A stretch of DNA of 64,000 bases from Mucispirillum schaedleri ASF457 (GTDB lineage: Bacteria > Chrysiogenota > Deferribacteres > Deferribacterales > Mucispirillaceae): positions 186,001-250,000 of the forward strand of contig NZ_CP097562.1 of NCBI RefSeq assembly GCF_000487995.2. The letters are read 5' to 3'. The translations under genes were made by a program, and so were the position numbers. The notes beneath the pieces were generated by a model. That model did no database searches, had not been told where the DNA came from, and worked only from the letters and a program-made list of their open reading frames with translations. Numbering within the stretch: the first letter of the stretch is position 1; each line of letters opens with the position of its first letter. This document shows positions 50,559-54,350 of this stretch, piece after piece.

Positions 50559-50701
50559 CTTACTAATAAATAAAGTAACATATGTAATATTCTATATAAA
50601 ATATGAATTTTTTTCAATGTAATTAAAAAAATATGTTGAAAAAATATAGAAAAATAGTAGACTAATCTGTGATAAGCTATGAAATAGTTATGGAGAGCAT
50701 A

Positions 50702-51640
50702 ATGAGCGAATTAGGAAATCTTTTAAAATCAACTAGAGAAGAGCAGAAAAAGTCAATGCAGGATGTAGTTGATGACACAAGAATTAGAGAAAATTTTATT
50801 AAAATAATAGAAGAAGGAAGATTTAAAGATTTACCATCATATTTACATGCTTATGGATTTGTAAAAAAATATGCAGAGTTTTTAAATCTGGATTATGAGA
50901 ATGTTGTATGGCCGCTTTTTGCTGAAGAATGTCCAAAAGAAGGAGCTCCAGCACAGCCAAAGGATATTACAAAAGAAGAGTATACTCCACCTACTACAGA
51001 AACAAATTTTTTAGAAAATGAGACAAAAAGTGGTAAAAAACCTGTAACAGTAATCATGCTTATTATTGTGCTGCTTATCATTGGCTATGGTGGTTATTAT
51101 GTGTATTCAAGCAATATACTAAATGATGCAGTTACTATTGGCAGCAATAATGCACCAGCAAATACTCCAGTTCCTGCTGCAGTTGTAGAGTTAGAACCTT
51201 CAGTAACTTTTGCAGGTGATAACACAAGTGATAATAGTTCATATTTTAATTATTACGGCACATCAATTTATGCTGATAATAATACAGATAATATGACTAT
51301 TAATGATAATACTGCAGAGCCATCTTATATTGACCCATTATTTGCTCAGACTATTCCAACACCTGTTGTTTTAGCGCCAGAAAAAGTTAAAGTGAGATTT
51401 TCTGAAAACTGCTGGTTTAAATACAGCACAGATAAAGGCGAAAGAAATGAAGTTAATGCAAGACGAGGCACAGAAATAGAAATAGAATTTGATAAAACAT
51501 TTAGAATAGAAATAGGTAATGCTGTTGCAGTATCAATGGAGTATAATGGACAAGAATATTCTAACTTTGGTAATAGAAATGTTGTTCGTATATTAAATTA
51601 TGAAGCACAAGACGGCAAACTGGAATTAGTTGGAAGATAG
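50702..51640 (+). CDS. rodZ: RodZ-like helix-turn-helix membrane protein
   Basis: 312 residues: a cytoplasmic HTH_25 domain (LGNLLKSTREEQKKSMQDVVDDTRIRENFIKIIEEG, SYLHAYGFVKKYAEFL), a charged linker, one membrane helix (about 118-138), a Pro/Asn/Thr-rich periplasmic linker and a DUF4115 domain (KVRFSENCWFKYSTDKGE, ARRGTEIEIEF). RodZ links MreB to the envelope and helps set cell shape. The start at 50702 follows GGAG six bases upstream; the frame from 50669 has no site. It heads the run continuing to nfu. Confidence 0.87.
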   Translation: MSELGNLLKSTREEQKKSMQDVVDDTRIRENFIKIIEEGRFKDLPSYLHAYGFVKKYAEFLNLDYENVVWPLFAEECPKEGAPAQPKDITKEEYTPPTTETNFLENETKSGKKPVTVIMLIIVLLIIGYGGYYVYSSNILNDAVTIGSNNAPANTPVPAAVVELEPSVTFAGDNTSDNSSYFNYYGTSIYADNNTDNMTINDNTAEPSYIDPLFAQTIPTPVVLAPEKVKVRFSENCWFKYSTDKGERNEVNARRGTEIEIEFDKTFRIEIGNAVAVSMEYNGQEYSNFGNRNVVRILNYEAQDGKLELVGR

Positions 51641-51646
51641 ATTATA

Positions 51647-52447
51647 ATGTTAAAAACAGCAATTTTTATTAATGACTATTTATTATTATTAGATTTTATA
51701 TCTAAAATAGAAGAGGAATTTCCACTTTTGGAATATACTGTATTTGGAGATAAAGAGTTTGCGTCATCATTAGAAGATAGTGCAGAAGGTTATGTAGAAA
51801 CTGATTTGTCTCTTTTAAAAGATGCAGAGCTTTTAATTATGCTTGCAAAACCAATGCAGGATGAAAAAGTTATTAAAAATTTTGATGGAACTATTATAGA
51901 TATTACTGGATATGATTTTGCTCAAGATGCTGAAATATTTAAAGTTTATGAGCCTGTTAGAAAAATTTTAAGAAATATTGCAGTGCCTGTATCAGATGTT
52001 TCTGTCGTTTTATCTCTTCCTGTTTGTATTTATGGCAGGCAGGGGGTTGAAGATTTAATGCAGCAGACAAGAAGTATTTTTACTTTTGATGAGACAAAGA
52101 GTTTAGTTTTTCACAACAGAATAGATTTTAATAAGCATTTTAATCCTGTTACAGCAGGTCTTCAAGTAGGTAAAACTGTTGATGATTTTGCTTCTTCAGG
52201 TGGTGATATATCTATTAGAATATCTCCATTATCTACTGTTTTTGAGATGGATGTTTTTGCAAAAGATATGTTTGGCTTAAAAAATGACGAAGGATATTTT
52301 CCAACTGAAAGTTTTTTTACAGCATCAGATGTTTCTGAACGCAGTGATATTACTGTGATACCACGAAAAAATGGTCTTACTTTTGTTGGAGATTATGTTA
52401 GGGTATTAATAGAAGATATTATTAAACAAATGAAAGAGGTAATTTGA
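51647..52447 (+). CDS. Aspartate-semialdehyde-dehydrogenase-like paralogue, probably not catalytic
   Basis: 266 residues. The segment VSVVLSLPVCIYGRQGVEDLMQQT and the later NRIDFNKHFNPVTA recall the dimerisation/catalytic domain of aspartate-semialdehyde dehydrogenase (V-x-x-x-Q-A-x-S-G-x-G-x-x-x-L-x-Q-T, and F-N-x-I-P). The glycine-rich NADP site and the active-site NPNCST are not recognisable. This recalls Usg, an E. coli paralogue of unknown function. Six bases after rodZ, two bases before the NifS-like start. The assignment is by eye and uncertain. Confidence 0.5.
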   Translation: MLKTAIFINDYLLLLDFISKIEEEFPLLEYTVFGDKEFASSLEDSAEGYVETDLSLLKDAELLIMLAKPMQDEKVIKNFDGTIIDITGYDFAQDAEIFKVYEPVRKILRNIAVPVSDVSVVLSLPVCIYGRQGVEDLMQQTRSIFTFDETKSLVFHNRIDFNKHFNPVTAGLQVGKTVDDFASSGGDISIRISPLSTVFEMDVFAKDMFGLKNDEGYFPTESFFTASDVSERSDITVIPRKNGLTFVGDYVRVLIEDIIKQMKEVI

Positions 52448-52449
52448 TA

Positions 52450-53649
52450 ATGAATCCGATTTATTTAGATAATATAGCTGGAACGAAACCGGATACACGA
52501 GTTGTTGAAGCTGTTATGCCTTATTTAACAGACAAATATGGCAATCCAGCAGCTCATTTTTATCCATTAGGAAGAGAAAGTTATAGTGCATTAAATCAAG
52601 CTAGAAAACAAGTTGCTGATTTAATTGGAGCAGAAAAAGCTGAAAGTATAATTTTTACATCTAATGGCACTGAATCAAATAATATTGCAATAAAAGGTAT
52701 TATGGCAGCAAGCAGTTATAAAAAACATATTATTATAAGCGAAATAGAACATTATTCAATTCAAAATCCTGTGTTAAAGTTAACTAATTATGGTTATACT
52801 TTTACGAAACTGCCTGTTGATAAAAATGGCAGAATTTCACCAGAAAGTGTTGCAAATGCAATAAAAGAAGATACTGCTCTTGTTGCTGTTGCACATGCAA
52901 ATTCTGAAATAGGTGTTATACAGGATATTGAAGCTATTGGCAAACTATGCAAAGAAAAAGGTGTTCATTTTCATGTAGATGCAGTTGCATCATGCGGATT
53001 TATAGATATTGATGTAAAAAAAATGAATGCATCAACATTAACTATTGCAGCACAAAATTTTTATGGTATTAGAGGTGCCGCAGCATTATATGTTGCACCT
53101 GAAGTAAAACTTGTTCCACTTTTTGATGGTGGGTTTCAAGAAAAGGGCATTAGGTGCGGCAGTGAAAATATTCCTGCTATCGTAGGGCTTGGAAAAGCAT
53201 GCGAAATCGCTAAAAATGAAATGGCAGAATACACTGTAAAACTTACAAAATTAAGAAATAAATTAATTGATGGTTTAACAAAACATTATGATTTTCTGCA
53301 TATTACAGGTGATAGAGAAAACAGACTTCCATATCATGTGAGTTTTTGGGTAGAATATATAGAAGGAGAATCACTTTTAATGTGGTATGCTCAAAAAGGT
53401 GTATATTGTGCCAGCGGTTCAGCATGTTCATCTAATATATTAGCAGAAGATGAAGAAGATTTGCAGGCTTCCCATGTATTAACAGCAGTTGGTGTGCCTA
53501 CAGATATTTGTGCAGGTTCAATAACTATGAGTCTGTCAAAATATATTGAAGAAGAAGATATTGACCATGTGTTAAAAGTAAGTCCGGAAATTATTGATAA
53601 ACTTTGTGCAATGAGCCCGGCATTTGACTCGTCAAAAATAAAAAAATAA
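52450..53649 (+). CDS. NifS/IscS-like cysteine desulfurase homologue lacking the PLP lysine
   Basis: 399 residues, full length. Present: YLDNIAGTKPD, TSNGTESNNIAIKG, EIEHYSI (His), HVDAVAS (Asp), GIRCGSENIPAIVGLGKA, and the mobile loop Cys326 in SGSACSS. The PLP-binding motif S-x-H-K-x-Y-G-P-K-G reads AAQNFYGIRG, so His and Lys are Gln202 and Asn203. The family's Gln after HVDA is also Ala. It is followed by iscU and nfu, which argues for an Fe-S role. The Archaeoglobus fulgidus IscS also lacks this lysine. ATG at 52450 follows AGAGGT. Confidence 0.88.
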   Translation: MNPIYLDNIAGTKPDTRVVEAVMPYLTDKYGNPAAHFYPLGRESYSALNQARKQVADLIGAEKAESIIFTSNGTESNNIAIKGIMAASSYKKHIIISEIEHYSIQNPVLKLTNYGYTFTKLPVDKNGRISPESVANAIKEDTALVAVAHANSEIGVIQDIEAIGKLCKEKGVHFHVDAVASCGFIDIDVKKMNASTLTIAAQNFYGIRGAAALYVAPEVKLVPLFDGGFQEKGIRCGSENIPAIVGLGKACEIAKNEMAEYTVKLTKLRNKLIDGLTKHYDFLHITGDRENRLPYHVSFWVEYIEGESLLMWYAQKGVYCASGSACSSNILAEDEEDLQASHVLTAVGVPTDICAGSITMSLSKYIEEEDIDHVLKVSPEIIDKLCAMSPAFDSSKIKK

Positions 53650-54107: not shown

Positions 54108-54125
54108 TCATATATGGAGTGGAAA

Positions 54126-54350
54126 ATGGAATTAAAAGAAAAAGTTCAACAAGTTTTGGATAAAGTTCGTCCAGGTTTGCAGGCTGATGGTGGCGATGTA
54201 GAGCTTATCAGTATTGAAGATGGTGTTGTAAAAGTTGCTTTAAGAGGTGCTTGTGGCAGTTGTCCTTTTAGTCTTATGACATTAAAACAAGGTATTGAAG
54301 CACGCATTAAAGAAGAAATTCCTGAAATTAAGGAAGTTGTTTCAGCATAA
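54126..54350 (+). CDS. NifU C-terminal domain (Nfu-type) Fe-S carrier
   Basis: 74 residues: the complete Nfu domain (VQQVLDKVRPGLQADGGDVELISIEDGVVKVALRG) with its cluster-binding CGSCPFS (CxxC). Probably delivers clusters built on IscU. The start at 54126 follows GGAG six bases upstream, whereas the earlier Met at 54114 has no site. Split from IscU as a separate gene, unlike full NifU. Ends at a strong terminator that closes the rodZ-nfu run. Confidence 0.92.
   Translation: MELKEKVQQVLDKVRPGLQADGGDVELISIEDGVVKVALRGACGSCPFSLMTLKQGIEARIKEEIPEIKEVVSA

What the first reader, a model, noticed from the sequence alone, without database searches (positions are those of the whole stretch)
52450..53649. 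NifS/IscS-like protein without the PLP-binding lysine, in one run with iscU and nfu
Seen: in a full-length cysteine-desulfurase homologue, the S-x-H-K-x-Y-G-P-K-G motif reads A-A-Q-N-F-Y-G-I-R-G, so Lys is Asn203 and the preceding His is Gln202. The Gln that usually stacks on PLP is Ala. The persulfide Cys326 and the EH histidine remain. Known: Archaeoglobus fulgidus IscS also lacks the lysine and was studied with IscU. Inference: this protein may be a sulfur-carrier or cluster-holding partner of IscU that takes sulfur from elsewhere, for example free sulfide, rather than from cysteine. A sulfide-rich gut niche would suit that.
Basis: partly seen in the sequence, partly recalled or inferred. 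Interest (0 to 1): 0.75.

Follow-up and report, generated by a model that had tools for sequence, protein, structure and literature searches.

The report
Catalytically dead IscS paired with IscU
A gut bacterium and nearly its whole bacterial class build iron-sulfur clusters on a scaffold protein whose usual sulfur-releasing partner enzyme has lost its catalytic residues but kept its sulfur-holding cysteine, so that partner probably works as a docking and cluster-holding protein instead of an enzyme.

Summary
The 399-aa NifS/IscS homologue at 52450-53649 has Asn203 at the PLP lysine. It has also lost other cofactor ligands (Gln183Ala, Ser203Ala, His205Gln, Asn155Ser, E. coli numbering) and the Arg354 position, which I take to be the substrate arginine (Thr). 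Cys326, His101 and Asp177 remain. It is not a sequencing error: Asn is present in all 44 Deferribacteres genomes that hold the gene (9 families), with dN/dS 0.07-0.11, equal to the intact paralogue. The gene is followed directly by iscU, usually then nfu. SufB/D is absent from 49 of 51 genomes of the phylum, A-type carriers from all, and IscU is single-copy, so this is the only dedicated Fe-S scaffold system found in most of the class. An intact NifS sits elsewhere in the genome, with cysE and an Rrf2 regulator. Archaeoglobus fulgidus IscS, a published non-desulfurase that donates a cysteine ligand to the cluster on IscU, lost the same lysine, glutamine and arginine. Reading 88 more loci gave 13 further lysine-less IscS proteins, seven beside iscU. 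Best reading: a non-catalytic IscU partner; sulfur comes from NifS or from sulfide. A new, class-wide variant of a known rarity; function is untested.

The parts
52450..53649 (+). iscS* : full-length type I cysteine-desulfurase homologue without PLP lysine (Asn203) and without the putative substrate Arg (Thr359); Cys326 kept; 7-residue acidic insertion in the Cys loop (SGSACSSNILAEDEEDLQASHVL)
53056..53058 (+). codon of Asn203 at the position of the PLP Schiff-base lysine
   Evidence: sequence
53425..53427 (+). codon of Cys326, equivalent of E. coli IscS Cys328 and A. fulgidus IscS Cys321 (cluster ligand there)
   Evidence: PMC9769115
53670..54107 (+). iscU, scaffold; Tyr3, Cys37, Asp39, Cys63, His105, Cys106 (E. 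coli numbering) all present
54114..54350 (+). nfu (NifU C-terminal-domain cluster carrier)
51647..52447 (+). USG-1/aspartate-semialdehyde-dehydrogenase-like degenerate protein directly upstream; in most but not all families of the order
50669..51640 (+). rodZ-like gene heading the run; conserved neighbour across the class

Best explanation
IscS* is a non-catalytic descendant of a NifS/IscS-type cysteine desulfurase, kept as the structural partner of IscU. It cannot form the internal aldimine with PLP or hold cysteine in the usual way. It keeps the dimer-type fold and the mobile Cys326 loop, which is lengthened and acidic. It most likely docks IscU and offers Cys326 as a transient ligand or persulfide relay while a [2Fe-2S] cluster forms, as A. 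fulgidus IscS does with Cys321; Nfu then carries clusters on. Sulfur comes from outside: from the intact, cysE-linked NifS elsewhere in the genome, or from free sulfide. Shown here: loss of the catalytic residues, conservation, synteny, absence of other scaffold systems, presence of intact NifS. Inferred: complex with IscU, role of Cys326, sulfur source.
For: Asn203 fixed in 44/44 genomes with the gene. The PLP ligands and the Arg354 position are lost together while Cys, His101 and Asp177 stay invariant. Purifying selection: dN/dS 0.07-0.11, and 0.085 against 0.088 for intact NifS in the same genome pair. Directly upstream of iscU wherever the contig continues, with all IscU ligand residues invariant. 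SufB/D absent in 49/51, A-type carriers 0/51, IscU single-copy. Intact NifS conserved with cysE and Rrf2. A. fulgidus IscS shows the same losses (K->D, Q->A, H->N, R->L), is reported to lack desulfurase activity and to provide a cysteine ligand to the cluster (PMC7585200; PMC9769115). AF2 model aligns over 372 residues to 4eb5 (Z 48.9). The two g11 genomes replaced this gene with an intact clostridial-type IscS next to IscU.
Against: No biochemistry. PLP may still bind non-covalently; the 4EB5 A. fulgidus complex is drawn with PLP (PMC9769115). The A. fulgidus protein may be a separate loss of Lys: the tree places it apart, although one clade is not rejected (AU p 0.22). The longer Cys loop is absent from the A. 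fulgidus protein and is modelled with low confidence.
Confidence: 0.72

Rival explanations
1. Division of labour with persulfide hand-over: intact NifS makes persulfide from cysteine and passes it directly to Cys326 of IscS*, which relays it to IscU. IscS* is then a sulfur carrier rather than only a ligand donor.
For: Intact NifS is conserved throughout the class with cysE and Rrf2; most other lysine-less genomes also hold an intact paralogue; Cys326 is invariant. In g11 the clostridial-type intact IscS beside IscU is the only close type I desulfurase found, as if it took over both roles.
Against: NifS is not next to iscU and may mainly serve tRNA thiolation (MnmA is present) and other thio-cofactors. 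A TusA relay is absent from Mucispirillum. No direct evidence of contact.
Confidence: 0.4
2. Sulfide-fed assembly: free sulfide plus iron forms the cluster directly on the IscS*-IscU complex, with no cysteine-derived sulfur needed.
For: The residues that hold cysteine and PLP in active homologues are lost. E. coli without IscS builds clusters from sulfide on IscU under anaerobiosis (PMC13015791), and a methanogen is reported to use sulfide rather than cysteine (cited in PMC12442378).
Against: The intact NifS is universal, so cysteine sulfur is available. The E. coli result shows that IscU can take sulfide without any IscS, which leaves IscS* unexplained.
Confidence: 0.35
3. IscS* uses PLP in another way (non-covalent, or a substituted Lys) and is still a desulfurase or a different PLP enzyme.
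For: His101, Asp177 and Thr74 of the PLP pocket are retained; PLP is drawn in the A. fulgidus complex (PMC9769115).
Against: No alternative conserved Lys; the Arg354 position and Gln, Ser and His contacts are gone; the A. fulgidus homologue is reported inactive (PMC7585200).
Confidence: 0.08
4. Decaying pseudogene product or sequencing artefact.
For: None beyond the missing residue.
Against: Same residue in 44 genomes; dN/dS 0.07-0.11.
Confidence: 0.01

Closest known systems
Archaeoglobus fulgidus IscS (PDB 4EB5, 4EB7, 4HVK, 4R5F)
   Same: Lysine-less IscS studied with IscU; loses Lys (D199), His->Asn, Gln->Ala and Arg->Leu and keeps the loop Cys (Cys321); reported without desulfurase activity, Cys ligates the cluster (PMC7585200).
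   Different: Asn instead of Asp; the 7-residue acidic Cys-loop insertion is absent in A. fulgidus; placed in a different part of the tree; here it is the only Fe-S scaffold partner found in nearly a whole bacterial class, with an intact NifS alongside.
Methanosarcina acetivorans IscS1
   Same: Reported to lack the catalytic lysine and to lie in an iscSU gene cluster (PMC7585200).
   Different: Sequence not compared here; that organism also has two IscS with the active-site residues conserved.
Bacterial ISC system (E. coli IscS-IscU)
   Same: Fold, IscU partner with all cluster residues, persulfide Cys, adjacent genes.
   Different: Catalytic Lys, other PLP contacts and the Arg354 position lost; no IscA-type carrier found.
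MIS minimal system (MisS-MisU) of methanogens
   Same: IscS-IscU pair; here too without SUF or A-type partners.
   Different: Known here only through PMC12442378; this run adds Nfu, and the desulfurase residues are gone.

Membership tests
Type I PLP-dependent cysteine desulfurase (NifS/IscS), as an enzyme | Lysine forming the PLP Schiff base | tested here: not met
   Asn in 44/44
Type I PLP-dependent cysteine desulfurase (NifS/IscS), as an enzyme | Arginine at E. coli position 354 (read as the substrate-carboxylate site, own knowledge) | tested here: not met
   Thr359 in window; T/G/M in the class
Type I PLP-dependent cysteine desulfurase (NifS/IscS), as an enzyme | Mobile-loop persulfide cysteine | tested here: met
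   Cys326 invariant
Type I PLP-dependent cysteine desulfurase (NifS/IscS), as an enzyme | Curated NCBIfam cut-offs (NifS 530.75, IscS 643.2 bits) | tested here: not met
   418.6 and 335.8 bits
Type I fold (Aminotran_5) | Full-length class V fold | tested here: met
   PF00266 228 bits; VIA Z 49-51 to IscS/NFS1
A. fulgidus-type non-desulfurase IscS | Lysine absent, loop Cys kept, Arg absent | tested here: met
A. fulgidus-type non-desulfurase IscS | Common descent with A. fulgidus IscS within the lysine-less set | tested here: inconclusive
   ML tree separates them; AU p 0.22 does not reject one clade
A. fulgidus-type non-desulfurase IscS | Complex with IscU, Cys as cluster ligand, no activity | not testable with these tools
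   only gene adjacency and residue conservation
MIS minimal Fe-S system | IscS/IscU pair as a minimal machinery | tested here: inconclusive
   SUF and A-type carriers absent, but the original definition paper is not held

The most novel reading that the evidence does not exclude
A recurrent ISC variant exists in which the IscS subunit is not an enzyme but a fixed structural and ligand-donating half of the IscU assembly site. It is the sole Fe-S scaffold machinery of nearly all Deferribacteres and recurs in many other bacterial lineages that mostly lack SUF, with desulfurase activity moved to a separate NifS or replaced by sulfide.
Probability: 0.5. Interest if true: 0.82.

Novelty: new variant of a known kind. 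Interest (0 to 1): 0.68.

Why it matters
Fe-S cluster assembly is essential, and textbooks describe the IscS-IscU step as a PLP enzyme handing persulfide to a scaffold. Here nearly a whole bacterial class appears to depend on an IscU whose partner cannot be that enzyme, with no SUF or A-type backup found. That makes the question left open by A. fulgidus directly testable in a cultured gut bacterium: whether IscS has a structural role separable from sulfur release, and where the sulfur comes from. The further lysine-less IscS proteins found across lineages suggest that annotation by family name alone overstates where cysteine desulfurases are.

Tried and rejected
Sequencing error: rejected by 44 genomes. 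Pseudogene: rejected by dN/dS. Relocated lysine: K13 is not conserved in the sister order or L133, and K82 is shared with active homologues. NifS as a dedicated tRNA-thiolation gene by linkage to MnmA: the neighbours are an MFS transporter and endonuclease III, not MnmA. TusA relay: absent in Mucispirillum. Gut-specific adaptation: rejected by presence in non-gut genera. Single origin of all lysine-less IscS: five changes on the wide tree, two forced by strong branches; one clade not rejected in the smaller tree. IscU adjacency as a feature specific to lysine-less proteins: in the wide sample it is not clearly commoner than for intact ones. The original A. fulgidus papers and the MIS paper could not be read.

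Full report
OBSERVATION. The window lies in a 2.35-Mb single-contig genome whose same-genus relatives match named Mucispirillum records (Deferribacterota, Deferribacteres, Deferribacterales). ORF 52450-53649 encodes a 399-aa NifS/IscS homologue (NifS model E 1.9e-125, but 418.6 bits against a curated cut-off of 530.75). The roles I assign to these residues (Schiff-base Lys, stacking His, PLP contacts, substrate Arg) are my own knowledge of the family, not tested here.

CONSERVATION. The gene was found in 44 of the 48 Deferribacteres genomes held (46 of the order, 2 of a sister order). The site was read in all 44 and is Asn in every one, with Gln before it in the order and Thr in the sister order. 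Cys326, His101 and Asp177 are invariant. Two draft genomes (G005, G025) have the gene split in two frames, probably assembly errors. The four genomes without it are G014 (neither iscS* nor iscU found, draft), G037 (iscU at a contig end), and G024 and G035 (genus g11), in which iscU sits beside an intact Lys-bearing IscS that groups with a clostridial one, next to an Rrf2 gene: this looks like a horizontal replacement. dN/dS between Mucispirillum species is 0.07-0.11; for one genome pair it is 0.085, against 0.088 for the intact NifS of the same pair. So the protein is under normal purifying selection without its catalytic residues.

CONTEXT. The order is rodZ-like, a USG-1/Asd-like degenerate protein (most families; profile hit to 2hjs, E 4e-5), iscS*, iscU, usually nfu. 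IscU keeps Tyr3, Cys37, Asp39, Cys63, His105 and Cys106 in 42 of 42 sequences compared, which include some from outside the class. IscU is effectively single-copy per genome (a second weak 22-bit hit in some Mucispirillum). SufB/D is absent in 49 of 51 genomes of the phylum, with all 14 control genomes positive. A-type carriers are absent in 51 of 51, with 9 of 14 controls positive. So iscS*-iscU is the only dedicated scaffold system detected in most of the class. TusA is absent from Mucispirillum. The intact type I NifS (SGHKIYAPKG, all PLP residues, Arg kept) lies elsewhere in a cysE-rrf2-nifS run conserved across much of the order.

RELATIVES. A. fulgidus IscS, verified letter for letter against 4eb5, has lost the same positions: Lys->Asp199, His->Asn, Gln->Ala, Arg->Leu; 4r5f is its D199K form. 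It is reported to lack desulfurase activity and to give a cysteine ligand to the cluster on IscU (PMC7585200; Cys321 in PMC9769115). Cys326 aligns to Cys321. In a tree of 59 proteins the Deferribacteres proteins and one labelled Nitrospinae (L133, Lys->Ser, beside iscU) form a clade with 100/99 support. A. fulgidus groups instead with L149, a bacterial Lys->Asp protein that I had first labelled as intact. One clade for all lysine-less proteins is not rejected (AU p 0.22).

WIDER SURVEY. Of 88 loci read there, 13 lack the lysine (Gln, Asp, Ser, His, Thr, Arg, Leu or Gly). Eleven of the 13 also lost the Arg354 position (L203 and L249 keep it), all 13 keep the loop Cys, and 7 lie beside iscU. Most of these genomes also hold an intact paralogue. 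On a 147-row tree with the active-site columns removed, lysine absence needs five changes and is strongly clustered, with two changes forced by strongly supported branches (quick method, many weak forks). In 40 of these genomes SufB/D was absent from 13 of 14 lysine-less and 14 of 26 lysine-bearing ones (one-sided Fisher p 0.012); genome completeness is unknown and the set was chosen by similarity to the query, so this is suggestive only.

STRUCTURE. The AF2 model (mean pLDDT 80.5; low at 226-238 and 325-341, the Cys loop) aligns to NFS1, E. coli IscS and A. fulgidus IscS with Z 49-51 over 372-382 residues. The fold is therefore that of IscS; the shared fold says nothing on activity. The Cys loop carries a 7-residue insertion (SSNILAEDEEDL region) present in the class and in L133 but not in the lysine-bearing homologues read here or in A. 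fulgidus.

MECHANISM. Shown: catalytic residues lost and the loss fixed; a conserved Cys; synteny with an intact IscU; no alternative scaffold found; an intact NifS elsewhere. Inferred: IscS* docks IscU and lends Cys326 as ligand or relay; sulfur comes from NifS or from sulfide. E. coli without IscS can use sulfide on IscU under anaerobiosis (PMC13015791), so sulfide feeding is chemically reasonable, but the data here do not choose between the two sources. The gut niche does not explain the trait, since it is shared by Calditerrivibrio, Denitrovibrio, Seleniivibrio and MAGs named after hydrothermal vents.

NOVELTY. A lysine-less IscS is known from A. fulgidus and M. acetivorans. I found no paper in the held library that joins Deferribacter with IscS and IscU, or that treats cysteine desulfurase pseudoenzymes; subscription papers are not held. 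What appears new is the class-wide fixation as the only scaffold partner, the replacement event in g11, the lengthened Cys loop, and the recurrence across lineages.

Noticed in passing
window 51647-52447: Degenerate USG-1/aspartate-semialdehyde-dehydrogenase-like protein upstream of iscS*, fast-diverging between families and missing in some: possibly a second pseudoenzyme in the same run.
   Followed up: partly
L078, L079 (G024, G035, genus g11): Intact clostridial-type IscS beside iscU, next to an Rrf2 gene, replaces the lysine-less gene: a natural replacement experiment.
   Followed up: partly
L002 (own genome, G000:C1:1842225-1843334): A third class V aminotransferase-like gene (Lys kept) lies between an FdhE-like gene and a formate-dehydrogenase iron-sulfur subunit.
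   Followed up: no
L143, L144 (G018, G025, family f5): A single SufB/D-like gene occurs only in this family of the phylum.
   Followed up: no
L162-L249 set: Lysine-less IscS with a loop of the form C[TS]SK.LK.SHVL and Arg354->Leu recurs in several unnamed lineages, often with an intact paralogue in the same genome.
   Followed up: partly
L086 5124-5378: An 85-aa protein without a known family follows the cysE-linked NifS and is conserved across the order.
   Followed up: no
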